Shown here one piece after another: positions 34,030 to 52,364 of a stretch of DNA of 64,000 nucleotides. Within the stretch, counting starts at the first letter, position 1. Each line of letters begins with the position of its first letter. Source of the DNA: Bacteroidota bacterium. Lineage in GTDB: Bacteria > Bacteroidota > Bacteroidia > Chitinophagales > Saprospiraceae. Under the pieces are notes generated by a model. It ran no database searches. It saw only the letters and a list, made by a program, of their open reading frames with translations, and was not told the origin of the DNA. The position numbers were made by a program, and so were the translations under genes. The stretch is taken from NCBI GenBank assembly GCA_016124585.1, contig WGNL01000010.1, positions 124,001 through 188,000 on the forward strand. The letters run 5' to 3'.

Positions 34030-34232
34030 AGTTTTACCTTTTTTTATGATTTCGGAATTGTCGGCCAGAAAACGTTTTCGGTTTACATTTTATTGAAAAT
34101 CAGAATGTTAAAAAAATGAAAAGCAAGTATTGCTGAATAGGAATTTTTCATCCCTGAAAACGCTGGGCATTGGCACCGAACCGGATTATATTGGTTATTT
34201 TCGCAGCTTTTAAGCGAACGAAATATTTCTAC

Positions 34233-37200
34233 ATGGAGCTTTTGAAAAAGCTGTTTTCTGGCCTCTTCTCCACTTCGGCAGCAGGTGTTTACATGATAGT
34301 TTTCGCAGCCTCCATCGGCATCGCCACCTTCATCGAAAATGACTTCGGCACCAGCGCGGCCCAGAAAGTGATTTTCACCACCAAATGGTTCGAACTGCTG
34401 CTCGTGCTGTTCAGTATCTGCTTGATTGTCAATATCTTCCGCTTTCGAATGGTGCAAATGAAGAAATGGGCGCAACTCATTTTCCACGCTGCCATGGTCA
34501 TCATCCTCATCGGGTCGGGCGTCACGAGGTATTTCGGGAAAGAAGGCATGATGGGAATCCGGGAGGGCAGCGCTTCCAATTCGTTCCTCTCCCGAGAAAC
34601 GTATTTGAATTTTCAGGTAAAAACGGGTGGTCGCAGCTTCAGCATCCACGAGCCAGTCCTGTTTGCTTCTTTGGGGAACAACCATTTTGAAAAATCCTAT
34701 CTGCTTGGCAATCAAACACTTAAAACGCAGGTGACCAGCTTCATGCCCAACCCTACCGAAACGATGGTGGACGACGACAACGGGCTTCCTACCCTGAAAG
34801 TCGTCATCGCTGGCGGGCAAGGCCGGGAGGAATACCTCGTGCAGCAAGGCCAACGCTCGAATATCTACGGCACAAATTTCAATTTCGGAAACCCCGAATT
34901 GCCGCAGGCTTTCAATATCAAATTGCAAAACGACAGCCTCTATTTCATGGCCAGCGTGCCGTTCGGCCAGATGGTGATGGCCACGCAGACGAGGGACTCA
35001 CTCGCCGCTGGGCAGTGGCACCCGCTCCGCCTCCGTAGCATGTACTCCGATGGGATGCACAGCTTTGTTTTCGGTGCATACAGCCCTCATGCCCGTACCG
35101 AAATCACTTCTTCCGACCGCAAAATGGCCAGCAACAGCACGGGCGGTGTAGAATTGGTCTTGACCTTCGGCAATGAGCAGCGCAAGGTGTTCGTGACGGG
35201 CAGCCAAGGCGTGGAAGGCACACCGAGGATTGCCGATTTTGGCAATTCCAGCGTGGCCGTGGCGTATGGGGCAAAACGGGTCGAACTCCCTTTCAGCATT
35301 GGACTTCGTGACTTCATCCTGGAGCGCTACCCCGGCTCCGACAACCCCTCCAGCTACGCCAGCGAAGTCACGCTGATAGACCAGCGGAAGAACGTGAACC
35401 GCAACCAGCGCATTTACATGAACCATATTCTGGACTACGGTGGCTACCGTTTTTTTCAATCCAGCTACGACCCTGACGAACTCGGCACCTACCTCAGCGT
35501 GAACTACGATGCGCCTGGTACTTGGATTTCGTATTTAGGTTATGCACTACTCACTTTAGGATTAATCATGGTTTTTTTCGTTAAAAACACCCGTTTCACC
35601 CAACTCACCAAGCAATTGAAGAATATGAGGGAGCAGACTGAAAAAGTGGTTGCCGCAGTATTGATAGGCATTTTCTTCGCCTTTTCATCGCCAGCGAGAG
35701 CAGAGGAAGCGCCCGCCACCATCATACAGAAATCCCATGCCGATGCCTTTGGGCGGCTCATCATGCAGGATATGTCGGGCCGCTTCAAGCCGATGAACAC
35801 CTTTTGCAACGAGGTACTTCGCAAATTGGCCAAAAAGGAAAGCCTGTACGGCCTCAGTTCCGAGCAGATTGTGATTGGGATGTCGGCGAACCCGCCGGCG
35901 TGGTACCATATTCCGATGATAAAGCTCGGCAGCCACGAGGAGGTGCGAAAACTTCTCGGCGTGGACGAAGCACTGGTACGCTACAGTGATTTTTTTGGGG
36001 AAAATGGCGAGTATAAACTGCGGGATGCCGTGCGCCAAGCTTACAACACACCGCCCCGTGACCGTGGCGTTTTTGAGAAGGAAATCGTGAAAGTGGATGA
36101 GAAGGTGAATATCGCCAGCATGGTTTTTTCTGGGCGGTTTTTGAAGATATTCCCAGTCCCCGGCGATTCGTCACATACTTGGATGAGTGCTGTACCCGAT
36201 GACCCTTCCATATTGGATAATCCGAATTTTAAAGGCTCCATTATTGAGGCATTTTACCCCGCATATCTGCCTGCATTAAAATTGGGTGTTCAAAATAATG
36301 ATTGGAGTTTAGCGGACAAAATAATAGCCGAATTAAGCAATTATCAGCGGCGATATGGCGGCGATGTTTTACCTTCAGATGGCAAAATAAAAGCTGAGCT
36401 TTTGCTCAATAAACTCAATGTGTTCAGCCGTTTGAGCGTGTTTTATAGTATATTGTCCATAATGTTTTTAGGCTTATTATTTACGGGGGTATTTAAACCC
36501 AATTTAAACCTAAAAACACCGGGCAAAATCGTCATCGCATTATTGACGCTTGGCTTTATATTTCATGCAATAGGCTTGGGGTTACGTTGGTATATTGCAG
36601 GCCGTGCGCCTTGGAGCAATGGCTATGAATCCATGATATGGATTGGCTGGACGGCCACCCTGGCAGGCTTGCTTTTCAGTCGAAAATCATTCGGCGGTCT
36701 GACGGCTACCAGCGTCTTGGCGGCGATTGTGCTGATGGTGGCTGGCATGAGCTACCTTGACCCAGAAATCACCCCGCTCGTTCCCGTCCTGAAATCCTAT
36801 TGGTTGACCATCCACGTATCGCTGGAGGCTGGCAGTTATGGTTTTTTGGCGCTAGGTGCCATCATCGGCGTTTTGAACTTGGTTTTCATGTTGTTTGTCA
36901 ATCGAAAGAATGGCGAAAATGTCTATCGCATCATCAAGGAATTGACCTATACCAGCGAGATAACCCTCATCGGCGGCTTGGTTATGATTTCCATCGGCAC
37001 CTATCTAGGCGGCGTCTGGGCGAACGAATCGTGGGGCCGCTACTGGGGTTGGGATGCCAAGGAAACCTGGGCGTTGGTGACTATTTTGGTGTATTCCTTT
37101 ATCCTGCATATGCGCTTTATCCCCGGCCTGCGTGGGCAATTGGCGTTCAATGTGGCCTCCCTTTTCGGCTGGGCCTCGGTGATGATGACTTATTTCGGTG

Positions 37201-37352
37201 TGAATTATTACCTCTCCGGCCTGCACTCTTACGCCGCTGGCGATCCCGTTCCGATTCCCGCTTGGGTACCTTGGACGGTGGGTGCTCTCACGGTTTTGAG
37301 TCTAGCCGCTTGGTGGCGGCACCGGACGTATCAGAAGCAAATCAAGGCATGA
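34233..37352 (+). CDS. ccsBA: Fused cytochrome c biogenesis protein CcsBA (ResB-CcsA)
   Basis: 1039 residues from the ATG at 34233. The N-terminal half is ResB/CcsB: membrane helices with SAAGVYMIVFAASIGIATFI and MKKWAQLIFHAAMVIILIGS, a large periplasmic part, and a helix near 450. The C-terminal half is CcsA, with helices from about 750 and the tryptophan-rich haem-handling motif WGRYWGWDAKETWALV (about 930) followed by the conserved His in FILHMRFIPG. It carries haem to the periplasm and attaches it to CXXCH motifs (system II). Its place next to two multihaem cytochromes that need over 100 attachments is telling. It faces the convergent lipoprotein gene. Confidence 0.95.
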   Translation: MELLKKLFSGLFSTSAAGVYMIVFAASIGIATFIENDFGTSAAQKVIFTTKWFELLLVLFSICLIVNIFRFRMVQMKKWAQLIFHAAMVIILIGSGVTRYFGKEGMMGIREGSASNSFLSRETYLNFQVKTGGRSFSIHEPVLFASLGNNHFEKSYLLGNQTLKTQVTSFMPNPTETMVDDDNGLPTLKVVIAGGQGREEYLVQQGQRSNIYGTNFNFGNPELPQAFNIKLQNDSLYFMASVPFGQMVMATQTRDSLAAGQWHPLRLRSMYSDGMHSFVFGAYSPHARTEITSSDRKMASNSTGGVELVLTFGNEQRKVFVTGSQGVEGTPRIADFGNSSVAVAYGAKRVELPFSIGLRDFILERYPGSDNPSSYASEVTLIDQRKNVNRNQRIYMNHILDYGGYRFFQSSYDPDELGTYLSVNYDAPGTWISYLGYALLTLGLIMVFFVKNTRFTQLTKQLKNMREQTEKVVAAVLIGIFFAFSSPARAEEAPATIIQKSHADAFGRLIMQDMSGRFKPMNTFCNEVLRKLAKKESLYGLSSEQIVIGMSANPPAWYHIPMIKLGSHEEVRKLLGVDEALVRYSDFFGENGEYKLRDAVRQAYNTPPRDRGVFEKEIVKVDEKVNIASMVFSGRFLKIFPVPGDSSHTWMSAVPDDPSILDNPNFKGSIIEAFYPAYLPALKLGVQNNDWSLADKIIAELSNYQRRYGGDVLPSDGKIKAELLLNKLNVFSRLSVFYSILSIMFLGLLFTGVFKPNLNLKTPGKIVIALLTLGFIFHAIGLGLRWYIAGRAPWSNGYESMIWIGWTATLAGLLFSRKSFGGLTATSVLAAIVLMVAGMSYLDPEITPLVPVLKSYWLTIHVSLEAGSYGFLALGAIIGVLNLVFMLFVNRKNGENVYRIIKELTYTSEITLIGGLVMISIGTYLGGVWANESWGRYWGWDAKETWALVTILVYSFILHMRFIPGLRGQLAFNVASLFGWASVMMTYFGVNYYLSGLHSYAAGDPVPIPAWVPWTVGALTVLSLAAWWRHRTYQKQIKA

Positions 37353-37449: not shown

Positions 37450-38241
37450 CTACTTCGCAACCACCGCCGACTCCAAGATATAATCGTATTTATAACCTGC
37501 TCCAAAGTCCTTGTTCAAGGCCAACGTCCCTTCCATCGTGACTGTCTGGCCGAGTTCCACTTGCTCAACGGTGGTCACCGTCAGGTCGAGGTCCTTGCCG
37601 GAGCCATCCTGTAGGTGGAGCCAGTTTCGACCCATGATCATCGGGTTTACCTTCATCACCTTGCCGGTCACTTTCACGGTTTTACCTTCATATTTTTTGA
37701 GATTAGCCACCAGGTCAGAGAGTTTGATGGCTCCCGCAGCAGGCGTCACGTTTTTCGGAGCTTCGACGGTGGAGCCGCTTTGAACATTGGCATGGGCCTG
37801 TTCCTTGGTCATGCCATCAGTCGTGGCGCCTTCTGGCCCAAAATCCGAGACGAGGTACAGCGTTTCGAAGTTCCGGTTGAATTCCTTGCTCTCAAAATTC
37901 TTCTTCATCAACCCGCCCCGATAGACGTAGTTCTTGCCGATTTCGATGGGCTGTTTCATCACGGCAACCCATACCTCTTGGCCGTTTTCCTTGCCCCGCA
38001 CGTAGGTGTATTTGTCTGTGTTCAACACCTCCTCCGCCGTTATTTTATGCTCCGCAACATCCAAGTTGGGCTGGCCGGGAGCCGTGTTCACACCGCCCTG
38101 CATGCCAGCGCCGGGGTCTTGGAACATGGGCGGGGCAGCATCACTGCCTGTGGAATCTGCTTCAACGACTTCGGGGCCGGAGTTGCAGGAAAAAACTGCT
38201 ATTGCGAAGAGCAAAACTGCCCAAATCTTTATGTTTTGCAT
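37450..38241 (-). CDS. Lipoprotein with C-terminal OB-fold-like domain
   Basis: 263 residues from the ATG at 38241. The lipobox FSCNSG places the Cys at about 19. A Gly/Pro-rich linker (FQDPGAGMQGGVNTAPGQP) follows. About 55-130 (VLNTDKYTYVRGKENGQEVW, YVYRGGLMKKNF) and about 175-263 (GKTVKVTGKVMKVNPMIMGR, WLHLQDGSGKDLDLTV) look like beta-barrel OB-type folds. The second resembles the small OB-fold domains found near cytochrome c and nitrite reductase genes. No CXXCH is present. It lies 81 bp after the barrel gene on the same strand, so it may belong to the cytochrome cluster. A TACCTTTG box on the minus strand (38271-38278) could start its own transcript. Confidence 0.7.
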   Translation of the reverse strand: MQNIKIWAVLLFAIAVFSCNSGPEVVEADSTGSDAAPPMFQDPGAGMQGGVNTAPGQPNLDVAEHKITAEEVLNTDKYTYVRGKENGQEVWVAVMKQPIEIGKNYVYRGGLMKKNFESKEFNRNFETLYLVSDFGPEGATTDGMTKEQAHANVQSGSTVEAPKNVTPAAGAIKLSDLVANLKKYEGKTVKVTGKVMKVNPMIMGRNWLHLQDGSGKDLDLTVTTVEQVELGQTVTMEGTLALNKDFGAGYKYDYILESAVVAK

Positions 38242-38322
38242 GATTGTCTTTTTTGAATTTTGATAGAAAGCAAAGGTAGGAATAAAGGAAAGCAATATTC
38301 GAGGAGATATGCATAGTTCAGT

Positions 38323-39945
38323 CTAAAACCGCTGCACCAATTTCGTATTCACCCGATGGAACGTATCCGCCTTTTTATCAAAAGTACCTTCATAATACAG
38401 GTACAAGGCCAGCTTCTTGGTCAGGTTCCAGGACAAATTTACCCCTAAAATTTCCTGCTGGATACGCAGTTCGCTCGTCGTGTAGCGATAGTCCACCATG
38501 CGAGCATAAACATCGGCACTGAGCTTGCCGGGCACAATGTCCCTCGTCAGGCGCAGTCCGTACATCTTGCTGGACAGGTAGTGTGTCTCCAAAAAATTAG
38601 CAGTGATGGACGCCGAGGTTTTCATCCAGGGAATCCGACTAATATTCAAGTAGCTGTTCAGGTTTTTCGACAGGTTGGCGTCGCTTTTTTGGAAACGCCA
38701 ACTTGCATTTATGCCCCATGTTATCAGTTTGAATGGCCGATAATTGAAGTTAAAACGCAGCCCCTGCCTTGTTTCATCGTCAATCAATTGGTCAATATAG
38801 TTCTTATAGCTTTCGTAGTAGATGATGTTTTTGCGGTTGTCGTAGGAGAGCGATAGGCTGGTTTTCTTCGAAATCTTCTGGCGCAAAGACAGGTACATAT
38901 TCGTTAAACTGGCCTTGCTTTTTGCCTCGCCATTTATGTTTTCGTATAAATCCACTTCCGCCGAACCGAAGAAACTCAGGTCTTTCAGCAAATTATTGGA
39001 ATGCTGAAAATACAGAAACCGCCTGTCCACCGCTCCGCTGTTCCGCTGCTCGATAAAGGCTGCAGTGCTCTGGCTCTGCTTGGAGTCTTTGAGACTATTG
39101 TACCCGATATAAGCACCCGCTTGCAGCAAGCTGAAGTCGAAACCATAGTCAGCGTAGTTCGGTCGAGAGCCGATAATGCCGCCAAGCATGAAATTGCCCA
39201 ACCCCTTCTCCACCTGCAAGCCGTCAATTGCTCCCATGCTTGAAATCCGCTGGTTGATTCTCCTTCCGAGAACGATGTTCGACGTCTTATCCAAATCATA
39301 TTTCAACGCCATCGAATACACTTTCAGCGCATCGCTGAGCTTATCCTTTACCGCTTGCCACTCACCGACCGTGTGACGGAAGGTGATGTAGGTATCCGTC
39401 GAAAAGCGGCTGTTTTTGATATTGTTCCCCTGCATCGTGAAGGCATAACGCATTCGGTGTGTCTCATCCCCCGCATAAAAATTGCTGTAGGAAGATGCGG
39501 AAACCCGACCCCGTATTTTTTGCTTGAAATCAGCCGTGGTTTTTTCTTCCGTTTCCGGGGTGACAACCACGGGCGCTGGCCCGGCAAGGCTATCCCGTGT
39601 CGTTTTTTGGGGAATTGTTTTACTTTCCTTTTCCGCTTTTTTTGGTTCTTCTTTTTTCAAAATCTTCGCAAAAAATACCTCACCTACATTCACCTTTTCC
39701 GCCAACAACGAAGAACAAACGCAGGACGTGGAAGACTTGTCCTTCACCACGAGACTCGGCGTCAGCACGCTGTCTTTTTGGGTAAAAAGCGTATCGCCCT
39801 TTTCGATGCCTTCCGTGGTGGCATATTTCACATAGACATTCTGCGAAGAAACATAGGATGCCGCACCCTGCACAAGAACCTTGGCGTCCTGCGCATACAA
39901 GAAACCGCAACAAACAATCAGCAATATGGTAAATCCGGTTTTCAC
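38323..39945 (-). CDS. Outer-membrane beta-barrel-like protein beside the giant cytochrome
   Basis: 540 residues from a GTG. Signal peptide to about residue 18, a small N-terminal domain (about 20-105; VYVKYATTEGIEKGDTLF and a CVC motif), a Lys/Glu/Pro linker, then about 400 residues of alternating amphipathic strands (RFSTDTYITFRHTV, LNSYLNISRIPWMKTSASIT, YLYYEGTFDKKAD) ending in a C-terminal strand with final Phe (NTKLVQRF), as outer-membrane barrels do. The gene starts 31 bp after the 85-haem cytochrome on the same strand. In porin-cytochrome systems a barrel sheathes a multihaem protein. That role is inference here; no similarity to MtrB is claimed. Confidence 0.65.
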   Translation of the reverse strand: MKTGFTILLIVCCGFLYAQDAKVLVQGAASYVSSQNVYVKYATTEGIEKGDTLFTQKDSVLTPSLVVKDKSSTSCVCSSLLAEKVNVGEVFFAKILKKEEPKKAEKESKTIPQKTTRDSLAGPAPVVVTPETEEKTTADFKQKIRGRVSASSYSNFYAGDETHRMRYAFTMQGNNIKNSRFSTDTYITFRHTVGEWQAVKDKLSDALKVYSMALKYDLDKTSNIVLGRRINQRISSMGAIDGLQVEKGLGNFMLGGIIGSRPNYADYGFDFSLLQAGAYIGYNSLKDSKQSQSTAAFIEQRNSGAVDRRFLYFQHSNNLLKDLSFFGSAEVDLYENINGEAKSKASLTNMYLSLRQKISKKTSLSLSYDNRKNIIYYESYKNYIDQLIDDETRQGLRFNFNYRPFKLITWGINASWRFQKSDANLSKNLNSYLNISRIPWMKTSASITANFLETHYLSSKMYGLRLTRDIVPGKLSADVYARMVDYRYTTSELRIQQEILGVNLSWNLTKKLALYLYYEGTFDKKADTFHRVNTKLVQRF

Positions 39946-39976: not shown

Positions 39977-42900
39977 CTATTTATGCCCATCGGGATGGCA
40001 GGTATAGCAAGCCTGACTATTATACTGATACCCGTTCACGCCTTGGTGTTCATCTGCCAAATCCGCAGGGTCGTCGTGCTCATGGCAGTCAATGCAACTG
40101 AACTGCGAGTAATTGTTTGGTGTCGTATGGCATTCATTGCAATTGTTCCACTCGCCCTCATGCTTTCCACTGTAAATCGGGAAATACATATTGTCGTGGT
40201 CCCAGTTGGCAGGTGTCCAGCCGTTTTGCGAATGGCAGTTTTCACAAGTTGTCGGGAAGCCCGCCGACTGGTGGTTCGGGTTGTTCGCTCCGTTGTAATC
40301 GGAGGCATGGCAGCCGTAGCACGTGTTCGGGGTGTTGTTGTAGTTGCCGTTGTGGCAAGTGGCGCAATCATTCTGGATACCCACGTGTGCCCCTTGGAAC
40401 TGCCAGAATTGATTGTGGATAGGAAAAGTCGCTGGATTCCAGTCTGGGTCGGTGGTGTGGCACATGGCGCAGTCCGTCGGCAACGCAAGTGCTACGTGAT
40501 TCGGATTTGCACTTGCATTGTAATCCGACTGGTGACAGCCGTTGCATGTGTTTGGCGTATTGTTGTAATTGCCGCCCACATGGCAGGCCGCACAATCATT
40601 CTGAACCGGGATATGCGCCCCTGTGAATGGCCAGAACTGGCTGTGGTTAAACGTCGAAGGCACCCAAGCATTCTGCGTGTGACAGTCGTCGCAGGTCGTT
40701 GGGAACTGGTTCGCCGCATGGTTCGGGTTCGTCGTGCCGTTGTAGTCTGCTTGATGGCAACCGAAGCAAGTCGTCGGTGTATTATTGTAATTCCCGTTGT
40801 GGCAAGCCGCACAATCATTTTGCACTCCGATATGCGCCCCAACGAACGGCCAGAACTGCCCATGAATCGGGAAGCTCGCTGGTTGCCAATCCGGGTCAGT
40901 CGTGTGGCATTGGGCACAGTCCGTTGGCAAGTTCAAGGCCGTGTGGCTAGGATTCGTACTGCCATTGTAATCGGGCTGATGGCAGCCGACACAAGTGTTC
41001 GGAGTCGAGGTATAATTCCCACCTATGTGGCAAGCTATGCAATCATTTTGCACCGGAATATGCGCTCCCGTCAACGGCCAGATGCTGTTGTGGTCAAAAC
41101 TCGAAGGCACCCAGCCAGCCGTCGTATGGCAGTCCTCACAGGTCACGGGGAACTGGTTGGTCGTGTGGTTCGGGTCAGTGGTGCCGTTGTAATCCGCCAT
41201 GTGGCAGCCGTTGCAGGTGTTCGGCGTATTGTTGTAGTTGCCGCCGATGTGGCACGCCGCACAGTCATTCTGAATATTAATGTGAGCCCCCGTCAGCGGC
41301 CAGATAGTATTGTGGTCAAAATTGGCAGGCACCCAAGCCGTTTCCGTGTGGCAGCTTGCGCAATCCGTTGGGAAATTGGCCGCCTCGTGGTCAGGGTTGG
41401 TCGTCCCGTTGTAATCGGCCAAGTGGCAGCCCACACAGGTGTTCGGCGTGTTGTTGTAATTGCCGTTGTGGCAGGCCGCACAGTCGTTCTGGATATTTGC
41501 GTGAGCGCCATTCAACTGATAAAACTGATTGTGAATCGGGAAAGTAGCGGGCTCCCAATCTGGGGCAGTCGTGTGGCACATCGCACAGTCCGTCGGCAGA
41601 CTGAGTGAGACGTGATTCGGGTTTGTCGAGCCGTTGTAGTCTGGCGTATGGCAGCCCGCACAAGTGTTCGGCGTATTGTTGTAATTGCCGTTGTGACAAG
41701 CCGCACAGTCATTCTGAATCGGCTGGTGCGCACCCGTCAGCGGGTAAAACTGGTCGTGAATGGCGAAACTCGCAGGCGCCCATCCCGGCGCAGTGGTGTG
41801 GCAGCTTGCGCAATCCGTGGGGAAATTCAACACCTCATGGTCGGGGTTCACGCTCGCATTATAATCCGTCGTGTGACAAGCAGCGCAATCCGTCGGCGTC
41901 CCTTGATACCCGTTGGCATGGCAGTCCACACAGTCAGCATTCAAGTGAGCCCCTGTCAATGGCCAAACCGTATTGTGGTCAAAACCGCCCTGCCCTTCCC
42001 CCGTCGGGTGACAAGCAAAACAAGCATTGCTGTTGTACTGATACCCTCCGACGCCATTGTGCAGGTTGTCAGTCTCTGGGTTCACGTGGCAGGTCGTGCA
42101 AGTAAATTCCGAGAAATTATTCGGGTTGTTGTGGCAATCCGTGCATTGCGACCACTCGCCATTGTGCGTTCCGCTGTAAATCGGGAAATATTGACTGTCG
42201 TGGTCAAAATTGGCAGGCACCCACGCCGTCTCCGTATGGCAGGTCGTACAATCCGTCGAGAAGCCCGCCTGCTGGTGGTTCGGGTTCGTCGTGCCGTTGA
42301 AATCCGCCGTGTGACAAGCATAGCAGGTGTTCGGCGTATTGTTGTAATTCCCGTTATGACAAGTGGCGCAGTCGTTGGCAATCAAAGCATGACCACCATT
42401 TAGCGGATAAAAATCATCGTGAATCGGGAACTGCGCAGGCTGCCAGTCAGGTGCCGTGGTATGGCACATGGCGCAATCGTTCGGGATGTTCAGCGCTACG
42501 TGGTTCGGGTTGGTCGAACCGTTGAAGTCCGGCGTATGGCAGCCGTTGCAGGTATTCGGCGTGTTAGAGTAGTTGCCCCCAACGTGACAGGCCGCACAAT
42601 CATTGGCCACCGGGATATGCGCTCCCGTAAACGGCCAAACGCCATTATGGTCAAACGTGGAAGGTACCCAAGCCGTCTCCGAGTGGCAGGTAGCGCAGTC
42701 CGTTGGGAACTGGTTCGTTACGTGATTTGGGTCGGTCGTGCCGTTGTAATCTGCTTGGTGGCAGCCCACGCAGGTGTTCGGCGTATTGTTGTAATTGCCG
42801 TTGTGACAAGTGGCGCAGTCGTTCGCAATCGTTGCGTGAGCACCATTCAATTGATAATACTGATTGTGAACCGAGAAGCTGGCAGGCGCCCAATCCGGTG

Positions 42901-45900
42901 CCGTCGTGTGACAGCTTGCGCAATCCGTGGACAGCCCTAACGCCACGTGGTTCGGATTGGTCGAACCATTGAAATCCGCCGTATGACAAGCCGCACAATC
43001 CGTCGGCGTATTCTGGAAACCCGCCGAATGGCAGTCCAAACATTCCGCCATCAAGTGTGCCCCCGTGAGCGGGAACGAAGTCGTGTTGTGGTCAAAAATA
43101 TTCGTCGCATCCCCCGTTGGGTGGCAAGCCAAGCAAGCCGGACTGCTGTACGAATAACCGCCCACGCCATTGTGCTGGTTGTTCGTCTCTGGGTTCACGT
43201 GGCAAGTCGTGCAGTTCACTTCCGCATAGTTCGCAGGGTTCGAGTGGCAATCCGTGCAAGCGTTCCACTCCCCATTGTGCGCACCGCTGTAAATCGGGAA
43301 GTATTGGCCATCGTGGTCGAAGTTCGCAGGAACCCAAGCGCTCTCGCCATGGCAGCTTGCGCAATCCGTCGGGAACTGTGCCGACTGGTGGTTCGGGTTC
43401 GTCGTGTTGTTGTAATCCGCAGCGTGGCAGCCGAAGCATGTATTCGGCGTATTGTTGTAATCCCCGTTGTGACAAGCGGCGCAGTCATTCGCAATCATGG
43501 CGTGAGCACCATTTAGCACATAAAAATCATTGTGAATCGGGAAGCTCGCTGGCTGCCAGTCGGGCGCTGTGGTATGGCACATCGCACAATCGTTGGGCAA
43601 GCCGAGCGCGACGTGGTTCGGGTTTTGCGAAGCGCTATAATCCGGCGTGTGGCAGCCCGCACAGTCCGTCGGTGTGGTCGTGTAATTCCCGCCAACATGG
43701 CATTGCGCACATTCATTGGCTACCGCAATATGGCTGCCGGTGAACGGCCAAACGCTATTGTGGTCAAAAGTGGAAGGTGCCCAAGCCGTCTCCGAGTGGC
43801 AAGTAGTACAATCATTCGGGAACTGGTTCGCCACGTGGTTCGGGTCATTCACGGCATTGAAGTCCGAGCTATGACAGCCAATGCAGGTGTTCGGCGTATT
43901 CGTGTAATCCCCGTTGTGGCAAGTGGCGCAGTCGTTTGCAATCGTTGCGTGAGCACCATTCAACACATAATAATCATTGTGAATCGCAAACGTGGCGGGC
44001 GACCAGCCGGGGTCGGTCGTGTGGCAGCTTGCGCAATCCGTCGGGATGTTCAGCATCACGTGGTTCGGGTTCGCTGCACCGTTGAAATCCGGCGTGTGGC
44101 AAGCCGCACATTCCGTGGAAGTCCCTTGGAAAACCCCACCAACATGGCAGTCAAAACATTCTGCCGTCAAGTGCGCCCCGGTCAACGGGAAAGCAGTCGT
44201 GTTATGGTCGAACACATTCGTCGCATCGCCCGTCGGGTGGCAGGCAAGGCAGGCATTGCTTTCGAAGACAAAACCACCCACGCCGTTGTGCTGGTCAGTC
44301 GTCTCAGGGTTCGCATGGCAGGTCGTGCAGGTGAACTGCGTGTAATCCGATGGATTCGTGTGGCAATCCAAACAAGCATTCCACTCCCCGTTGTGCGCAC
44401 CGCTGTATATCGGGAAATGCTGCGCATCGTGGTCAAATGTCGCAGGCGACCAAGTGGTTTCCGTATGGCATTCCGTGCAGTTTTGTGAAAACTGCAAAGC
44501 CGTGTGGTTCGGGTCGGTCGTTGCAGCATAATCCGCTTGGTGGCAGCCGAAGCAAGTATTGGGCGTATTGTTGTAATCCCCATTGTGACAGGCGGCGCAG
44601 TCGTTCGCAATCATGGCGTGTGCGCCATTCAGCACATAAAAATCATTGTGGATGGGGAAAGTCGCAGGATTCCAGTCGGGTGCTGTCGTATGGCACATCG
44701 CACAGTCATTCGGCAGGGCCAGTGCTACGTGGTTCGGGTTTTGCGAAGCGCTGTAATCCGGCGTGTGGCAGCCCGCACAGTCCGTCGGCGTGTTCGAGTA
44801 ATTCCCCCCGACGTGACATTGCGCACATTCATTGGCCACCGCAATATGGCTACCCGTGAACGGCCAAACCGCATTATGGTCAAAGTTCGAAGGTGCCCAG
44901 GCCGTCTCCGAGTGGCAGGTGGCGCAGTCTGTCGGGAACTGGTTCTGCACGTGGTTCGGGTCACTCGCCGCATTGTAATCGGGCGTATGGCAGCCCGCAC
45001 AAGTGTTCGGCGTATTGTTGTAATCCCCATTGTGACAGGCGGCGCAGTCATTCGCAATTGCAGCGTGCGCACCATTCAATACATAAAAATCATTGTGATT
45101 GGCGAAGGTGGCGGGTGCCCAGCCGGGGTCGGTCGTGTGGCAGCTTGCGCAATCATTTGATAAGCCGAGGCTTGTATGGTTCGGGTTGGTGGTTCCGTTG
45201 AAATCCGCCGTGTGGCAGGCCGCACATTCCGTCGGTGTTCCGGTGTAAACGTTACCGACGTGGCATTGCGCACAATCCACCGTCAAGTGCGCCCCCGTCA
45301 GCGGAAAGGCCGTGTTGTTATGGTTAAAAGCCCCGTCCGCTTCGCCCGTCGGGTGACAGGCGAGGCAGGCCGAATTTTCATAAACATAACCCACCACGGC
45401 GTCGTGCGCATCGTCCGTCTCCGGGTTCACGTGGCAGACCGTGCAACTGTTCTCTGCGAAATTATTGGGGTTGATGTGGCACTCGGCACACTCATTCCAG
45501 ATGCCTTTGTGCTTGCCGCTGTAAATCGGGAAATACTGCCCGTCGTGGGCGAGGAACTGCGCCGGGTTCCAGTCGGGGTCGGTCGTGTGACATTGCGCAC
45601 AGTCGTTGGGGAAGTTCGCCGTCTGGTGGTTCGGGTTCGTCGTCCCTTCGAAATCAGGCTGGTGGCAGGCGAAGCAGTTGGTAGGCGTATTTGCAAAATC
45701 GCCGCCCGTGTGGCACTTGGCGCATTCGTTCGTCTCATGTCCCTTCGTCAGCGGGAAAAACGAGTGGTCCACTTTGTCCGTGTTCCAGTCCGGCACATCA
45801 GGGCTGTGGCACTCGATGCAGTTTGTCGAGAACCCCGCCTGCGGGTGGTTTGGGTTCGTCGAATTGTTGAAATCGGCGAGGTGGCAGTCCACACACTCGT

Positions 45901-46417
45901 TGCCAAGGCGGTCGAAGCGCAGGCCCGTTTCGCTCACGTGGCACTCAGCGCAGCTCACCGTTTTATGAACGCCCGTAAGCGGGAAGCCATTCTCGAAGTG
46001 AATTTTCTGCACGTCATCCACTAGCCAGTTGTTCGGCGTATGGCAGCGGGCGCAGTCGTTCCCCACCGTCTGCTGGTGAATGTCCACGTGACAGGAGTTG
46101 CAGTCCGGCTTGGCCTTTTCAAATACCAGCGACTCGTGGCAGTCCCTGCAATCCACGTTTGCGTGGCGTCCCGTGAGGATGAAGCTCGTCTTATTGTGAT
46201 GGAAAAGGGTAGTATCAACCGGCAGCAACATCCCAGTCGTCTTTGACTTGGTTGGCTTTTGTAACTCGATGTTTTTCCAGTAATCAGCTGCTATCTCCCA
46301 GCCTGCCGGGGAATGACAGGCCGCACAGTCCATTTTTAGGGCTGTGCCGTGAGGGTTTTGCGAGAACAATTCCGTCCCCAAAACCAGCAGGATGATGATG
46401 AAAAGCAGTCTGTGCAC
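39977..46417 (-). CDS. Giant multihaem cytochrome c with about 85 CXXCH motifs
   Basis: 2146 residues from a GTG giving a signal peptide (LLFIIILLVLGTELFSQ). Counting through the translation I find 85 CXXCH motifs, about one per 25 residues. From about residue 330 the protein is a tandem repeat of three-haem modules of about 75-80 residues: FPLTGAH..., C-CH-GGNYNNTPNTC-GCH, DYNGTTNPNH, FPTDC-CH, then W-P-FDHN. Within this, a special three-haem insert (YFPIYSGAHNGEWNAC, NPETNNQHNGVGGY, ACLACHPTGDA) recurs at motifs 11, 26, 41 and 56, every 15 motifs, and again at 83. Extra histidines in NPNH and FDHN could be distal ligands. No T9SS domain or lipobox is seen, so it should stay in the periplasm or be held by the neighbouring barrel. 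Probably a long electron wire or capacitor. Confidence 0.95.
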   Translation of the reverse strand: MHRLLFIIILLVLGTELFSQNPHGTALKMDCAACHSPAGWEIAADYWKNIELQKPTKSKTTGMLLPVDTTLFHHNKTSFILTGRHANVDCRDCHESLVFEKAKPDCNSCHVDIHQQTVGNDCARCHTPNNWLVDDVQKIHFENGFPLTGVHKTVSCAECHVSETGLRFDRLGNECVDCHLADFNNSTNPNHPQAGFSTNCIECHSPDVPDWNTDKVDHSFFPLTKGHETNECAKCHTGGDFANTPTNCFACHQPDFEGTTNPNHQTANFPNDCAQCHTTDPDWNPAQFLAHDGQYFPIYSGKHKGIWNECAECHINPNNFAENSCTVCHVNPETDDAHDAVVGYVYENSACLACHPTGEADGAFNHNNTAFPLTGAHLTVDCAQCHVGNVYTGTPTECAACHTADFNGTTNPNHTSLGLSNDCASCHTTDPGWAPATFANHNDFYVLNGAHAAIANDCAACHNGDYNNTPNTCAGCHTPDYNAASDPNHVQNQFPTDCATCHSETAWAPSNFDHNAVWPFTGSHIAVANECAQCHVGGNYSNTPTDCAGCHTPDYSASQNPNHVALALPNDCAMCHTTAPDWNPATFPIHNDFYVLNGAHAMIANDCAACHNGDYNNTPNTCFGCHQADYAATTDPNHTALQFSQNCTECHTETTWSPATFDHDAQHFPIYSGAHNGEWNACLDCHTNPSDYTQFTCTTCHANPETTDQHNGVGGFVFESNACLACHPTGDATNVFDHNTTAFPLTGAHLTAECFDCHVGGVFQGTSTECAACHTPDFNGAANPNHVMLNIPTDCASCHTTDPGWSPATFAIHNDYYVLNGAHATIANDCATCHNGDYTNTPNTCIGCHSSDFNAVNDPNHVANQFPNDCTTCHSETAWAPSTFDHNSVWPFTGSHIAVANECAQCHVGGNYTTTPTDCAGCHTPDYSASQNPNHVALGLPNDCAMCHTTAPDWQPASFPIHNDFYVLNGAHAMIANDCAACHNGDYNNTPNTCFGCHAADYNNTTNPNHQSAQFPTDCASCHGESAWVPANFDHDGQYFPIYSGAHNGEWNACTDCHSNPANYAEVNCTTCHVNPETNNQHNGVGGYSYSSPACLACHPTGDATNIFDHNTTSFPLTGAHLMAECLDCHSAGFQNTPTDCAACHTADFNGSTNPNHVALGLSTDCASCHTTAPDWAPASFSVHNQYYQLNGAHATIANDCATCHNGNYNNTPNTCVGCHQADYNGTTDPNHVTNQFPTDCATCHSETAWVPSTFDHNGVWPFTGAHIPVANDCAACHVGGNYSNTPNTCNGCHTPDFNGSTNPNHVALNIPNDCAMCHTTAPDWQPAQFPIHDDFYPLNGGHALIANDCATCHNGNYNNTPNTCYACHTADFNGTTNPNHQQAGFSTDCTTCHTETAWVPANFDHDSQYFPIYSGTHNGEWSQCTDCHNNPNNFSEFTCTTCHVNPETDNLHNGVGGYQYNSNACFACHPTGEGQGGFDHNTVWPLTGAHLNADCVDCHANGYQGTPTDCAACHTTDYNASVNPDHEVLNFPTDCASCHTTAPGWAPASFAIHDQFYPLTGAHQPIQNDCAACHNGNYNNTPNTCAGCHTPDYNGSTNPNHVSLSLPTDCAMCHTTAPDWEPATFPIHNQFYQLNGAHANIQNDCAACHNGNYNNTPNTCVGCHLADYNGTTNPDHEAANFPTDCASCHTETAWVPANFDHNTIWPLTGAHINIQNDCAACHIGGNYNNTPNTCNGCHMADYNGTTDPNHTTNQFPVTCEDCHTTAGWVPSSFDHNSIWPLTGAHIPVQNDCIACHIGGNYTSTPNTCVGCHQPDYNGSTNPSHTALNLPTDCAQCHTTDPDWQPASFPIHGQFWPFVGAHIGVQNDCAACHNGNYNNTPTTCFGCHQADYNGTTNPNHAANQFPTTCDDCHTQNAWVPSTFNHSQFWPFTGAHIPVQNDCAACHVGGNYNNTPNTCNGCHQSDYNASANPNHVALALPTDCAMCHTTDPDWNPATFPIHNQFWQFQGAHVGIQNDCATCHNGNYNNTPNTCYGCHASDYNGANNPNHQSAGFPTTCENCHSQNGWTPANWDHDNMYFPIYSGKHEGEWNNCNECHTTPNNYSQFSCIDCHEHDDPADLADEHQGVNGYQYNSQACYTCHPDGHK

Positions 46418-46449: not shown

Positions 46450-46588
46450 TGACAATGAAATCCAATTCCGCACCGTAGCAGGCGCTTCCCGAACCCTAAT
46501 TATCTGAAACGGTATTTTTCACAACCGAACGGGGAGTCTTCTTTGTTTTCCCTTCGGAAAAGGTAGGGGAGGGGGCGGTAGCGTTGTT

Positions 46589-47215: not shown

Positions 47216-49063
47216 CTACTTATGACAAACCACGCACTCAAAGCTCACGAACTTGTACTGCACCGTCACCACCTCATTTATTTCCTTCGGTAAATGGCAT
47301 TTGTCGCAGGCCGTTTCGGCATGTTTTCCTTCCAGCGGGAACTGTGTCTTCTGGTGGTTAAAAGATGAAATGACCCAATCATCATTGCCGTGGCAGCGGG
47401 CACAATCCGTCACGCCGTCCCGCTCGAACTGCCCCGCATGGTTGTCCGCATGGCAACTGGCACATTCCTGCGCCAAACCAGCGAAGCGGCGTTCCGGCGG
47501 CTCCTGCACATGGCATTCCCGGCAGTCCACCTGTTGGTGTTTGCCCTTTAGTTGAAACTTCGTTTTGTTGTGGTCAAAATTGCCGACCGCTGACCAGCTT
47601 TCCGTCACATGGCAGGTCTTGCAGTCTTGGTTGGGATACCATTTTTCCGCCAATTCATTACCCTGTTTGTGGATGTCCACGTGGCAGTCCACACAGCGCT
47701 CACCGATTTTTCGGAAGAGCCATTTATCCTCCTTCAGATGACAGGCAAAACATGGCGTCGCCACATGCGCTCCATCCAGTGGAAACTTGGTCCTGCCATG
47801 TTGTTCAATCGAAAAGCTACTCCCTTGGAATCCGTCCACCGTGTGGCACTCAGCGCAGTCGGGCGCCTTCGCCAATCCCCCTTGAGGGGGTCGGGGGGTG
47901 TTGAACTGTCCCTCGTGGTAGTCTGAGTGACAAGCGGCGCAGGTATTGTGTGGCAACGGGTCGGTGAAACTATCAGCTGTATGACATTTTTTGCAGTCCA
48001 CGGCGGCGTGTTTCCCAGCCAACTCAAAACCAGTGAGGGTGTGGTTGAAATTTTCAAGGCTGCCCAGTTCTATTTTGTGGAACGAGCTTTCGTTATGGCA
48101 GCCAGCGCAGTCCTGCCCGAATTTCCCCTCGTGCGGGTCACGGTGGCAGGTGGCACATTCGTTTGTTTTTACCCCAAGCCTATCCTGAAAAACGGAGGTT
48201 GGCATAGTCGCCACCATGTTGTGGCAATCCTTGCAGTCAACTTGCTTGTGTTTGCCCTTCAGAGCAAAATGCGTTTGGTTGTGGTTGAAACGGGTGAGGC
48301 TGCTAGTGTTCTGAAAGGACTGCTCGTTGTGGCACTGCTTGCAGTCCGAACCGAGGTGGCTGCGGTGTGGGTCATCGTGGCAGGCGTTGCAATTCTTGGA
48401 GGCCACATCGGCGAAGTGCTGGAATTCCTTGCCGTTTTTCACTTCCATTTTGTGACATTCCTTGCAGTCCACGGTTTTGTGTTTGCCTGCTAGGGCGAAG
48501 TCGGTTTTGTCGTGGTTAAACTTGGTGGCAGGCTTGAAATCGTCCATGCCGTGGCATTTGCCACAGTCGTTCGAGAGGGTCTTTTGGTGGTAGTCGTCGT
48601 GACAGTCAAGGCACTGCTTGCCCATGCCAAGGAAAGTGTCTTTGCGTTTCTTTAGGCTATAATCGTCGATATTATCGGGCTTGTGGCATTCCCGGCAGTC
48701 CACTTTTTTGTGGGCACCTTCCAAGGCATATCCCGCCAGTGAGTGGTTGAAGTTTTTTTCATCGAAACGCACCATGTCGAAATTCCGACCGTGGTGGTCG
48801 CTGTGGCAGGTGGCACAGTCCTTACCCTTCACATCTCTGGAGACGTGGTAGCCCTCCCGCTTGTCCATCAAGCTTTTGATTTCTTTGTGGCAAGCGAGAC
48901 ATTTATCGTTGGAAACCTTGCTTCCAAGCACGTGGCATTGGGTGCAATTGCTCATTCCCTCCAGCTTGGCGTGTGCAGCGGAGAGGTCGCCAGGGGAGAG
49001 CTGGGCGACGGCGGCGCTGGCGAGCAGGACAAGGAAAGAAATGTTTAGAATTACAATTTTCAC
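47216..49063 (-). CDS. Multihaem cytochrome c with 23 CXXCH motifs
   Basis: 615 residues from a GTG with signal peptide (IVILNISFLVLLASAAVAQ). I count 23 CXXCH motifs in three-haem modules: F-L-GKHKTVDC-ECH, then C-ACH-DPH, then LGSDC-QCH-F, then FNH-KTHFAL. The DPH, DYH and DIH triplets after haem motifs and the FNH/FDH histidines could be axial ligands. It resembles the cytochrome c3/c7-like and doubled CXXCH proteins of soil and sludge Bacteroidota. No membrane anchor. It is placed between the oxidoreductase genes and the giant cytochrome on the same strand and may pass electrons from the inner membrane to it. Confidence 0.93.
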   Translation of the reverse strand: MKIVILNISFLVLLASAAVAQLSPGDLSAAHAKLEGMSNCTQCHVLGSKVSNDKCLACHKEIKSLMDKREGYHVSRDVKGKDCATCHSDHHGRNFDMVRFDEKNFNHSLAGYALEGAHKKVDCRECHKPDNIDDYSLKKRKDTFLGMGKQCLDCHDDYHQKTLSNDCGKCHGMDDFKPATKFNHDKTDFALAGKHKTVDCKECHKMEVKNGKEFQHFADVASKNCNACHDDPHRSHLGSDCKQCHNEQSFQNTSSLTRFNHNQTHFALKGKHKQVDCKDCHNMVATMPTSVFQDRLGVKTNECATCHRDPHEGKFGQDCAGCHNESSFHKIELGSLENFNHTLTGFELAGKHAAVDCKKCHTADSFTDPLPHNTCAACHSDYHEGQFNTPRPPQGGLAKAPDCAECHTVDGFQGSSFSIEQHGRTKFPLDGAHVATPCFACHLKEDKWLFRKIGERCVDCHVDIHKQGNELAEKWYPNQDCKTCHVTESWSAVGNFDHNKTKFQLKGKHQQVDCRECHVQEPPERRFAGLAQECASCHADNHAGQFERDGVTDCARCHGNDDWVISSFNHQKTQFPLEGKHAETACDKCHLPKEINEVVTVQYKFVSFECVVCHK

Positions 49064-50135: not shown

Positions 50136-51464
50136 TCACCGGTGCTTCTTCACCGTATATCCAAACCGTTTCTTAATTTCCACCCCTGTCTTCTGCAAAA
50201 ACTGCGTCGGCAACTCACCACCAGCGAAAATGTACACAAGGTCGTTTTTCAACGCTTCTTTCCCACCAGTTTCCGTGAGCGCCAGTTCAACCAGTTCCTT
50301 ATCAATTTTCACGACGTTAGATTTCAGTTTCACATCCAGTTTTCCTTCGGCAATGGCGGCTTCCAGCTTCTCCCGGTTCTTCGGCTTTACCCGACTGAAT
50401 GCCTCGCTGCGATAACTGAGCACCACTTGGTTTTGCTCCGCCAAGGATAGCGCCGCTTCGATGGCCGAGTCGCCGCCGCCCACTACGACGACGTTTTTGC
50501 CGATGACGTTTTCGGGTTCGAGCAGGCGGTAGGCCACTTTTTCCATGCCCTCGCCGGGCACGCCGAGCTTGCGAGGGCTACCCCTGCGGCCGATGGCGAG
50601 TAGCACATTCTTCGTTTTGAACTCCTTTCCCTTGGCAGTGAACACCCGGAAAATTTCGCCATCAATCTGGATGCCCTCGACTTTCGTGTTCTCTTGGATG
50701 GTAATGCCATTTTTCAGCAAAGCCTCATTCCAGAGGTTTAAAAGCTCCGTTTTGCTGGTGTCGAAAAGCTTGATTTTGCCATACATCGGCAGTTCGACGG
50801 GAGCGGTCATCACGATTTTTGAGCGGGGAAAATTGAAGACCGTGCCGCCGAGCGAATCTTGCTCCAAAGTGATGAAGTTGAGGCCGTGCCGTTTGGCCGT
50901 CAGGGAGGCAGAAATGCCTGCCGGACCTGCGCCGATGATGACGACATCGTAAGTGTCGCCGCCTTTTTGTTCGATGTTCTTCGCAATGCTGTTCATCGCC
51001 TGCTCGCCCTGCTCTACGCTGTTTTTGATAAGGCCCATGCCGCCCAATTCACCAGCGATGTAAATCCCCGGCACATTGGTCTCGAAGTTCTCACTGACGT
51101 GCGGCAGGTCAACGCCCCTTTTCTCCGTACCAATGACGAGCGAAATCGCCTCCACCGGACAAGCATGGAAGCAAGCGCCATGCCCCACGCACTCCGCCGC
51201 ATTGATCAAAGTGGCCCGCCCATGCACGATACCGATGATATCCTTCTCTGGGCAGGCTTCGATGCAGGCGCCACTCTTAATGCAAGTTCCCAAATCAATC
51301 ACCGGGTGCAGTGAAACTGGCTCGTGCATGCCAATCTGCTTGGCAATTTCAATCTTGGCGGTGGTCTTTTGGGTGGTCTTTTTTTGCTTTTTTAAATAAA
51401 AGAAAATGACCACGGCGCAAAACAACCCGACACTTCCGTAGATGATGAATTGTTCGAGAATCAT
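50136..51464 (-). CDS. Membrane-anchored 2x[4Fe-4S] / FAD-NAD(P) oxidoreductase
   Basis: 442 residues. One N-terminal membrane helix (about 6-24). Ferredoxin-type domain (about 55-115) with CIKSGACIEACP and CVGHGACFHACP, the Cys pattern for two clusters with one widened spacing. Then a thioredoxin-reductase-like flavoprotein (about 130-442): an FAD site GAGPAGISAS, NAD(P) site GGGDSAIEAALSLAEQ, and a second flavin motif YIFAGGELPTQFL. The catalytic CxxC of thioredoxin reductase is absent. It probably moves electrons between NAD(P)H or ferredoxin and the cytochrome b encoded 30 bp upstream. Close homologues of this Fe-S-fused YpdA-like type are found near multihaem genes. Confidence 0.85.
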   Translation of the reverse strand: MILEQFIIYGSVGLFCAVVIFFYLKKQKKTTQKTTAKIEIAKQIGMHEPVSLHPVIDLGTCIKSGACIEACPEKDIIGIVHGRATLINAAECVGHGACFHACPVEAISLVIGTEKRGVDLPHVSENFETNVPGIYIAGELGGMGLIKNSVEQGEQAMNSIAKNIEQKGGDTYDVVIIGAGPAGISASLTAKRHGLNFITLEQDSLGGTVFNFPRSKIVMTAPVELPMYGKIKLFDTSKTELLNLWNEALLKNGITIQENTKVEGIQIDGEIFRVFTAKGKEFKTKNVLLAIGRRGSPRKLGVPGEGMEKVAYRLLEPENVIGKNVVVVGGGDSAIEAALSLAEQNQVVLSYRSEAFSRVKPKNREKLEAAIAEGKLDVKLKSNVVKIDKELVELALTETGGKEALKNDLVYIFAGGELPTQFLQKTGVEIKKRFGYTVKKHR

Positions 51465-51494: not shown

Positions 51495-52364
51495 CTAAAA
51501 TACCCACCTCGCCCCCATCGCCAACGTGACTGCCACATGGATGACCATGATTATCAGCATAATCAGAGCAAAAGGCAGATGCGCCACATGCCAATATTTG
51601 AACAGTTTTTGCATGACGGCCAATCGCTCGATGCGATTGTTAAGTGTCAGTTCGTTGTTCACCAGTTTTGACAGTTTGCGCACATCAGGGCTGGCCACGC
51701 CGTTTTCCCGAAGGGTGCTTTTCACTTGGCGGAGGGTCTTTTTATCTTCGAAATATTTGCTGAAAATGCTCGAAAGCACGTTGCCACTAAATTTCTGACG
51801 GCCAACATTGACCGTTTCAAGCACAAGTTGGTAGCTAGAATCATTCAAGTGGTACTGGCTTTTCAAGGATTCACCAAGGTCGGCTTTCATGGCTTTCACC
51901 TCATTCAAACTCAACTCCCTACCGCCGATAGTTCTTGGTATTTGACCATAAATAAAACGCCCGATGATGCCGCTCGCCACCACCGCCACCATGCTCCAAA
52001 AACTGATGGAAACAATGCCGCCGAACTTGAACGCTGTGTGAAAGAGTATCATGACCGGGCCAAGGCTGCACAGGAAGATATGGAATTCGAGCCAGTATTT
52101 TAACCTGCCGAAACGGGCGAGGGTCTTGAATTTCTTGCGGGCTTGATAGCCAAAAACACCAATCAAAATCAGCAGTGTACCAACGATACCCAATCCATGC
52201 CCGAAGACGCCGCTGGGTTTGAATAGGTTGTGGTCAGGATGGTAAAACCGCTCTTCAATCGGGGTGCTGTAGTAGGGGATTCCTTTGATAAGTAGAATAA
52301 AAAAAGTCAGGATAACAATCCCGGTCAAGACAGAAACATAAATGGTGTGAGCCAGCTTAGACAT
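51495..52364 (-). CDS. Cytochrome b-like membrane protein
   Basis: 289 residues. Hydrophobic helices at about 10-28, 55-72, 92-110, 118-138 and 258-282. Histidines that could bind haem lie within them: GHGLGIVG, EFHIFLCSLGPVMILFHTAF (two His 14 apart), and YWHVAHL with VIHVAVTLAMG. This is the layout of b561-type or formate-dehydrogenase-gamma-like cytochromes. The soluble part between helices four and five (about 145-245) is charged and helical. First gene of the minus-strand cluster, next to the Fe-S flavoprotein, so quinol oxidation or reduction is likely. Confidence 0.75.
   Translation of the reverse strand: MSKLAHTIYVSVLTGIVILTFFILLIKGIPYYSTPIEERFYHPDHNLFKPSGVFGHGLGIVGTLLILIGVFGYQARKKFKTLARFGRLKYWLEFHIFLCSLGPVMILFHTAFKFGGIVSISFWSMVAVVASGIIGRFIYGQIPRTIGGRELSLNEVKAMKADLGESLKSQYHLNDSSYQLVLETVNVGRQKFSGNVLSSIFSKYFEDKKTLRQVKSTLRENGVASPDVRKLSKLVNNELTLNNRIERLAVMQKLFKYWHVAHLPFALIMLIIMVIHVAVTLAMGARWVF

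What the first reader, a model, noticed from the sequence alone, without database searches (positions are those of the whole stretch)
39977..46417. Cytochrome with about 85 haem-binding motifs in one chain
Seen: 85 CXXCH motifs by hand count in 2146 residues, arranged as three-haem modules with a special three-haem insert every 15 motifs (11, 26, 41, 56) and again at the end (83). Known: most multihaem cytochromes of electron-transfer bacteria carry 4 to about 30 haems, so this is near the extreme. Inference: the higher-order period of 15 suggests growth by unequal duplication of a five-module block, and a rod of stacked haems long enough to cross the periplasm or extend from the cell. The break in the 15-period before the last insert (27 motifs) looks like a later gain of 12 motifs.
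Basis: partly seen in the sequence, partly recalled or inferred. Interest (0 to 1): 0.88.

Follow-up and report, generated by a model that had tools for sequence, protein, structure and literature searches.

The report
Giant 85-haem cytochrome of Saprospiraceae
A bacterium encodes one very long protein with 85 haem-attachment sites that, with its neighbour genes, looks like an electron wire or electron store spanning the cell envelope; relatives have the same wire in lengths that change three haems at a time, and its long body avoids lysine and arginine.

Summary
Confirmed: the minus-strand ORF 39977-46417 (2146 aa) has exactly 85 CXXCH; all 170 Cys lie in them, and spare His are spaced as expected for bis-His ligation. 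An assembly accident is unlikely: a congener keeps all 85 motifs in register at 51% codon identity in the body, and a named strain has 82.

It is one haem plus 28 triplets. Of 93 complete relatives 86 have 3n+1 motifs. The neighbourhood is conserved: predicted cytochrome b, FAD/Fe-S oxidoreductase, 23-haem cytochrome, giant, outer-membrane barrel (22 predicted strands), lipoprotein. The body has no Lys/Arg for 1,780 residues; 34 of 42 large relatives have under 1%.

Best reading: a one-chain haem rod at the end of a NAD(P)H-to-outer-membrane electron pathway; extracellular wire versus periplasmic store is undecided. AlphaFold of the rod failed.

Already in print: Saprospiraceae proteins with very many motifs and the EET/capacitor idea (PMC11495043); 113 haems in Methanoperedenaceae (PMC7082337). 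Added here: triplet rule, cap, gene neighbourhood, Lys/Arg desert, a named host strain (Phaeodactylibacter xiamenensis).

The parts
39977..46417 (-). giant cytochrome, 2146 aa, 85 CXXCH (1 + 28 triplets)
46358..46417 (-). probable Sec signal peptide, residues 1-20 (read by eye; no lipobox Cys)
   Evidence: sequence; mature start by the family pattern QN.PHG
45491..46357 (-). N-cap: residues 21-309, haems 1-10, keeps Lys/Arg; also present in 13-haem relatives
40166..45505 (-). Lys/Arg desert: residues 305-2084, 1,780 residues without K or R
45275..45490 (-). internal cap triplet S1, haems 11-13
44159..44374 (-). internal cap triplet S2, haems 26-28
43043..43258 (-). internal cap triplet S3, haems 41-43
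41933..42145 (-). internal cap triplet S4, haems 56-58
39980..40141 (-). C-terminal cap triplet S5, haems 83-85
47216..49063 (-). partner cytochrome, 615 aa, 23 CXXCH; of 66 complete ORFs of this family 51 have 23, 14 have 20 and one fragment has 14
50136..51464 (-). 442 aa FAD/NAD(P) oxidoreductase with ferredoxin-type Fe-S motifs and an N-terminal hydrophobic stretch (the latter by eye)
51495..52364 (-). 289 aa membrane protein; His95/His109 and His259 or His262/His276 among its invariant residues in 11 sequences: two b-type haems predicted (inference)
   Evidence: no Pfam match
38323..39945 (-). 540 aa outer-membrane protein: small N-terminal beta domain (22-96), disordered linker, 22 predicted strands of 8 or more residues (143-539), ends in Phe
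37450..38295 (-). 281 aa probable lipoprotein (lipobox by eye, start codon uncertain), usually behind the barrel gene
34170..37352 (+). CcsBA-like cytochrome c maturation protein (ResB + CcsA/CcsB), near the operon in many relatives, in either orientation

Best explanation
The giant is a single-chain, bis-His multihaem wire made of repeated three-haem units between an N-cap and a C-terminal cap. It is the outermost cytochrome of a dedicated envelope pathway: NAD(P)H (or menaquinol) -> FAD/Fe-S oxidoreductase -> cytochrome b in the inner membrane -> 23-haem periplasmic cytochrome -> giant, which is held by or passed through its own large outer-membrane barrel, so that electrons reach acceptors or partners outside. 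Shown: motif number, His supply, triplet rule, conserved gene neighbourhood, barrel prediction, purifying selection. Inferred: haem occupancy, cytochrome b haems, direction of electrons, surface position, rod shape.
For: 85 motifs with a repeating 0-1-2 supply of spare His (exceptions in the full report); 18 motif His and 19 other His all invariant over 17 homologous blocks; 85 of 85 motifs and 87 of 90 other His kept in G001 with dN 0.10, dS 1.5 (dS near saturation). The gene order cytb-FAD-23/20-haem-(short paralog)-giant-barrel-(lipoprotein) recurs in Saprospiraceae, Bacteroidales, Melioribacteraceae and Flavobacteriales MAGs. Barrel modelled at pLDDT 77.4 with 22 strands, best aligned to TonB-receptor barrels, Z up to 19.2. 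A haem ORF stands immediately upstream of 49 of 59 barrel ORFs in the family sample, 9 of the other 10 being at a contig edge.
Against: No expression, haem or localisation data. The giant carries no lipobox and no T9SS tail (by eye), although the genome has at least 150 Por_Secre_tail matches, so how it would leave the cell is unknown. The barrel fold is generic; pore open or closed is untested. The model of the rod failed, so shape is a guess. The genome has two COX1-type oxidases, so oxygen respiration is available without this pathway. Some loci deviate from the common order (L084, L103, L127, L134).
Confidence: 0.5

Rival explanations
1. Periplasmic electron store ('capacitor'): the giant stays inside the outer membrane, takes up to 85 electrons per molecule from the 23-haem partner and returns them when conditions change; the barrel has another job.
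For: Soluble-type signal peptide, no anchor and no T9SS tail seen by eye; haem number varies widely between relatives, as expected if capacity and not exact length matters; the same idea is in print for Geobacter periplasmic nanowires (PMC10138318, passages) and for sludge Saprospiraceae (PMC11495043, passages); COX1-type oxidases in the genome fit life with changing oxygen.
Against: Does not explain the barrel gene next to it nor the Lys/Arg desert.
Confidence: 0.3
2. Not an electron wire but a haem or metal reservoir, or a redox enzyme (peroxide, NO) that happens to have many haems.
For: No gene of the set has been tested; the very acidic body (164 Asp+Glu in 1,837 aa) could bind cations.
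Against: Each haem has a candidate second His, leaving no obvious open site for catalysis; genes for electron delivery are commonly next to it.
Confidence: 0.08
3. Assembly or repeat artefact: the true haem number is lower or the array is chimaeric.
For: Many contigs of relatives end inside the gene (open5/open3 rows).
Against: Longest exact repeat is 43 bp; G001 has the same 28-triplet pattern at 84% identity; 82 motifs in P. xiamenensis KD52 on a 308-kb contig; module arrays in three genomes of one contig (G449, G558, G616). No reads were seen.
Confidence: 0.02

Closest known systems
Secreted many-CxxCH proteins of activated-sludge Bacteroidota/Saprospiraceae (PMC11495043)
   Same: Same bacterial family, extreme motif numbers, same EET/capacitor proposal; probably the same kind of protein (abstract and passages seen).
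   Different: Architecture, triplet rule, gene neighbourhood, barrel, Lys/Arg desert and named host strains are not in the passages I saw; supplements could not be read, so sequences were not compared.
Geobacter triheme-domain 'nanowire' cytochromes GSU1996 (12 haems) and GSU2210 (27) (PMC10138318, passages; PDB 3ov0)
   Same: One chain of repeated three-haem domains, secreted; the giant scores far above Pfam's Cytochrome_C7 cut-off.
   Different: Spacing order differs: giant 15/16, 25/26, 30-37; GSU1996 26-28, 16-18, 34-36. GSU1996 has one His-Met haem per domain in print; the giant has a spare His for each haem. phmmer with the giant finds no PDB chain at E<=0.001.
113-haem (and 69-haem) MHCs of Methanoperedenaceae (PMC7082337, passages)
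   Same: Comparable or larger haem number.
   Different: Archaeal; not compared in sequence here.
Gene neighbourhoods with over a hundred haem motifs found by MHCscan (PMC11475568, passages and one section)
   Same: Shows that very haem-rich clusters are widespread; surveys porin-cytochrome neighbourhoods.
   Different: The words Bacteroidota and Saprospir- do not occur in its main text.
OmcS/OmcE/OmcZ cytochrome filaments (PMC9473688, passages)
   Same: Long haem chains; all eight OmcZ haems are bis-His.
   Different: Polymers of small subunits (OmcZ: 8 haems per 58 A rise); here one gene encodes the array; no PDB sequence match.
Porin-cytochrome complexes MtrCAB / Pcc
   Same: Barrel gene beside multihaem cytochrome genes.
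   Different: 22 predicted strands (MtrB 26, recalled) and no Pfam or NCBIfam name; 23- and 85-haem cytochromes instead of decahaems; no lipobox on the giant.

Membership tests
Broad c3/c7 cytochrome families of Pfam | score above the gathering cut-off | tested here: met
   Cytochrome_C7 303.7 bits (cut-off 24.8), Cytochrom_c3_2 215.5 (25), MtrC/MtrF domain II/IV 141.2 (30), Cytochrom_CIII 139.8 (22.9)
c7 triheme nanowire family (TIGR04257 / GSU1996) | score above the curated NCBIfam cut-off | tested here: met
   48.3 bits against cut-off 40 for the whole protein, but the best stretch covers profile 24-74 of 75; single modules match weakly, 28 of 46 at E<=1
c7 triheme nanowire family (TIGR04257 / GSU1996) | order of motif spacings within the triplet | tested here: not met
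   giant 15/16 then 25/26 in 25 of 28 triplets; GSU1996 26-28 then 16-18 in 4 of 4 (letters from the alignment); no circular shift turns one into the other
c7 triheme nanowire family (TIGR04257 / GSU1996) | sequence similarity to solved c7 structures | tested here: inconclusive
   giant: 0 PDB sequences at E<=0.001; module profile: best nine-haem cytochrome E 0.0025, PpcA chains from 0.057 over 24 residues. The 23-haem partner does match 3ov0, E 1.3e-8
c7 triheme nanowire family (TIGR04257 / GSU1996) | one His-Met haem per domain (GSU1996, in print) | tested here: inconclusive
   three spare His per triplet suggest all bis-His; no structure
Porin-cytochrome (Mtr/Pcc) conduit | outer-membrane barrel encoded with the cytochromes | tested here: met
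Porin-cytochrome (Mtr/Pcc) conduit | barrel homologous to MtrB/PcoB | tested here: inconclusive
   no Pfam family in the window protein; 1 of 13 homologues hits OMP_b-brl_3 at 0.002; MtrB not among the 50 rows listed
Porin-cytochrome (Mtr/Pcc) conduit | barrel physically binds a multihaem cytochrome | not testable with these tools
   needs pull-down or structure
Polymerising cytochrome filaments (OmcS/E/Z) | small subunit of 4-8 haems | tested here: not met
   one chain of 85 motifs; whether the chains also polymerise is untested
Giant Saprospiraceae MHCs of PMC11495043 | Saprospiraceae protein with signal peptide and a very high CxxCH number | tested here: met
   same-genus genome G001 holds the same 50,641-bp contig as a record titled Saprospiraceae bacterium
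Giant Saprospiraceae MHCs of PMC11495043 | sequence homology with the listed proteins | not testable with these tools

The most novel reading that the evidence does not exclude
A genetically encoded single-molecule nanowire: the N-cap docks at its own outer-membrane barrel and the Lys/Arg-free, polyanionic body is exported through it, giving a rod of about 60 nm (85 haems at the roughly 7 A per haem of OmcZ). Its length is set by gene recombination in three-haem steps, and the missing Lys/Arg make the exposed part immune to trypsin-like proteases and invisible to trypsin-based proteomics.
Probability: 0.25. Interest if true: 0.88.

Novelty: new variant of a known kind. Interest (0 to 1): 0.66.

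Why it matters
It turns a curiosity (very many haems in one chain) into a testable system: a quantised family from 13 to 94 motifs with one gene neighbourhood, present in named strains (P. xiamenensis KD52 with 82 motifs, two Labilibaculum strains with 22). Natural length variants let one ask how conduction, storage and reach depend on haem number. The Lys/Arg desert predicts that standard trypsin proteomics sees only about the first 300 residues, which may be why such proteins are overlooked. An envelope electron pathway spread over Bacteroidota with an unnamed barrel would widen the known range of electroactive bacteria.

Tried and rejected

Artefact: rejected. 'Later gain of 12 motifs': rejected. 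'Insert' reading of the special triplet: replaced by C-terminal cap. 71 of 93 complete members have it by a strict pattern; of the 22 misses 18 carry an FPIYSGKH-type form by eye (3 of them with a CX3CH motif), 4 do not: fragments of L165 and L168, and L123 (10 motifs) and L191 (19 motifs), which are doubtful members.

Triplet rule, results against: 7 of 93 complete ORFs are not 3n+1. Three are pieces of frame-broken genes (L165 once, L168 twice), three have one CX3CH in place of CXXCH (L173, L178, L208) and one lacks the usual N-terminal motifs (L085). The doubtful L123/10 and L191/19 are among the 86. Members are related and not independent; loci of one genome from two collections were merged only by identical last 60 residues and length. 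Triplet types A/B/S come from my own text patterns; many triplets in relatives stay unclassified (x).

Lys/Arg desert, results against: 8 of 42 complete members with 40 or more motifs have 1% or more K+R in the body, four of them 5.2-6.8%, so the fold does not need it. The binomial test (2 of 283 differences against 39 expected) assumes equal mutation rates and single steps; it is crude. Only one literature search used lysine or trypsin terms (20 of 4,608 papers listed), so absence from print is weakly tested.

Gene order, results against: contig ends cut many loci, and L084, L103, L127 and L134 deviate from the common order. In one search the match of congener G011 is weak (E 1e-8) and need not be a giant.

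T9SS export: tail family common in the genome, absent at the giant's C-terminus (sequence). Lysine deserts in print concern ubiquitin and pupylation (PMC10169902, PMC10665810, search listing only); they do not explain missing Arg. MtrB was not listed among the fold matches, which decides nothing. PDB search with the barrel profile: only mavicyanin at E 0.75. Literature searches on this kind of protein: and for Phaeodactylibacter; to the point were PMC11495043, PMC7082337 and PMC11475568. PMC9304909 and PMC3534657 (passages) had nothing on it. One search was a throw-away pattern used to get the genome handle.
Full report
Observation. The ORF on the minus strand at 39977-46417 is 2146 aa with a GTG start and a hydrophobic N-terminus that looks like a Sec signal peptide. 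It has 85 CXXCH; the other five frames have none. All 170 Cys lie in these motifs and shuffled sequence gives about one.

Anatomy. Motif 1 stands alone; 28 triplets follow. An ordinary triplet reads [H..GxH]-C-15-C-25(with PNH)-C-33; 25 of 28 triplets keep 15/16 then 25/26. After motifs 2, 3, 4 and so on the number of spare His runs 0, 1, 2 in repeat; the departures are three after motif 1, one extra after motifs 25 and 84, and one instead of two after the last motif. In 17 homologous 18-motif blocks, 18 motif His and 19 other His are all invariant. This is the pattern expected if every haem is bis-His, but haem occupancy is not shown. Ordinary triplets alternate between two types (A, B, by my own text patterns). 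The pattern here is N-cap (motifs 1-10), then S ABAB S ABAB S ABAB S AABBABAB S, where S is the special triplet.

What S is. Relatives of 13 motifs consist of N-cap plus S. By strict pattern 71 of 93 complete members end in S, and by eye 89 of 93. So S is a C-terminal cap, and the internal S triplets look like relics of cap-ended units joined in tandem (inference). In G010 three members of 16, 31 and at least 24 motifs stand as separate genes in a row.

Triplet rule. I gathered 202 distinct ORFs with 10 or more motifs from the window and the loci: 132 fall to the giant family, 70 to the partner family. Of 93 complete giant-family ORFs 86 have 3n+1 motifs, from 13 to 94 and one doubtful 10; the seven others are accounted for in Tried and rejected. 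The seven complete giants of the genus, own included, have 82, 82, 85, 85, 88, 91 and 94. G003 and G004 differ by one triplet inside a run of near-identical triplets (best matches up to 0.96 within G003). So the family changes length by whole triplets, most simply by unequal recombination (inference).

Not an artefact, and under selection. G001 has the same 28-triplet pattern; all 85 motifs and 87 of 90 other His align. Its body shares 85% of residues but only 51% of codons, dN 0.10, dS 1.5. 26 of 28 triplets find the triplet of the same number as best match. The longest exact repeat in the gene is 43 bp. P. xiamenensis KD52 has 82 motifs on a 308-kb contig, and module arrays occur in three genomes of one contig (ORFs of 718-1085 aa; their motifs were not counted).

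Lys/Arg desert. Residues 305-2084 hold no Lys or Arg; the body from motif 11 has 2 Lys, 0 Arg and 164 Asp+Glu in 1,837 residues, while the N-cap has 20 Lys+Arg in 289. Of 42 complete members with at least 40 motifs, 34 have under 1% Lys+Arg in the body (median 0.3%), four have 1.0-1.8% and four have 5.2-6.8%. The 23/20-haem partner has a median of 12% (65 proteins). Between G000 and G001 2 of 283 residue differences involve Lys or Arg, against about 39 expected from the codons (crude). So the desert seems to be kept by selection in most lineages and is not needed by the fold. In a trypsin digest of the mature protein the body is one peptide of 1,781 residues.

Neighbourhood. Common order: cytochrome b (invariant His), FAD/NAD(P) oxidoreductase with Fe-S motifs, 23- or 20-haem cytochrome, often a 13-haem short paralog, giant, outer-membrane protein, lipoprotein, often CcsBA nearby. 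A haem ORF is directly upstream of the barrel ORF in 49 of 59 cases (9 at contig edges, 1 missed because the ORFs overlap by more than my rule allowed), in 59 of 61 (2 missed likewise) and in 12 of 12, in three overlapping sets. The barrel protein is in 65 of 298 genomes of the family, own genome included. It is modelled with 22 strands after a small beta domain and a disordered linker (pLDDT 77.4). It aligns best to TonB-receptor barrels (PirA, Z 19.2, rmsd 4.2, 347 residues); Foldseek puts pilus ushers first. No domain of the size of a TonB plug is modelled (plug size recalled); whether the pore is open is untested.

Breadth. 21 of 60 relatives (own included; all 14 of the genus, one of them weakly) match the giant. 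In the named collection 195 stretches encoded relatives and the best 80 were kept as 74 loci, so the sample leans to close relatives: mostly Saprospiraceae MAGs, also MAGs titled Bacteroidales, Ignavibacteriales, Melioribacteraceae, Flavobacteriales and Cytophagales, and strains of P. xiamenensis and Labilibaculum. 21 of 296 genomes drawn over the phylum, own included, have modules at E<=1e-20.

How it most likely works. Electrons from NAD(P)H or menaquinol cross the inner membrane by the flavoprotein and cytochrome b, pass the 23-haem protein and enter the N-cap of the giant; its haems carry or store them; the barrel links it to the outer membrane. Every step after the gene order is inference. 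At OmcZ's 58 A per 8 haems (PMC9473688, passages) 85 haems would span about 60 nm if fully extended. Wire and store are not exclusive; I put 0.5 and 0.3.

Known or new. Saprospiraceae proteins with very many motifs, and more than 100 in some Bacteroidota, were reported in 2024 (PMC11495043, abstract and passages); neighbourhoods with over a hundred motifs too (PMC11475568, passages); 113 haems in 2020 (PMC7082337, passages). By Pfam the giant is a c7/c3-type cytochrome far above cut-off. The closest characterised design, GSU1996 with 12 haems in four triplets (PMC10138318, passages), has the two short spacings in the opposite order and is not matched by phmmer with the giant. Hence: new variant of a known kind.

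Noticed in passing
window 46587-47085: Two arrays of a 21-bp tandem repeat (higher periods 42/63/84) between the 23-haem gene and the giant, where relatives such as G001 carry the 13-haem short paralog; a 106-aa ORF 46496-46816 runs through one array.
   Followed up: partly
window 49105-50109: RES-domain protein (334 aa) standing in the operon between the FAD oxidoreductase and the 23-haem gene; no homologue among the ORFs of the relatives' loci compared.
   Followed up: partly
window 53249-60217: 2322-aa protein with a T9SS type B sorting domain near the operon.
   Followed up: no
L173, L178, L208: Three members from Bacteroidales/Bacteroidetes MAGs have one CX3CH (CTTSCH) in the C-terminal cap where others have CXXCH, so CXXCH counting misses one likely haem site.
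   Followed up: partly
L185, L104, L107, L126: Four lineages have 5-7% Lys/Arg in the giant's body; in L185 some Lys stand where others have Asn. A natural comparison for the function of the desert.
   Followed up: no
L168 9794-13036 and 12703-14103; L165 8724-10493: Giant genes broken into overlapping or separate frames, either real decay or sequencing error.
   Followed up: no
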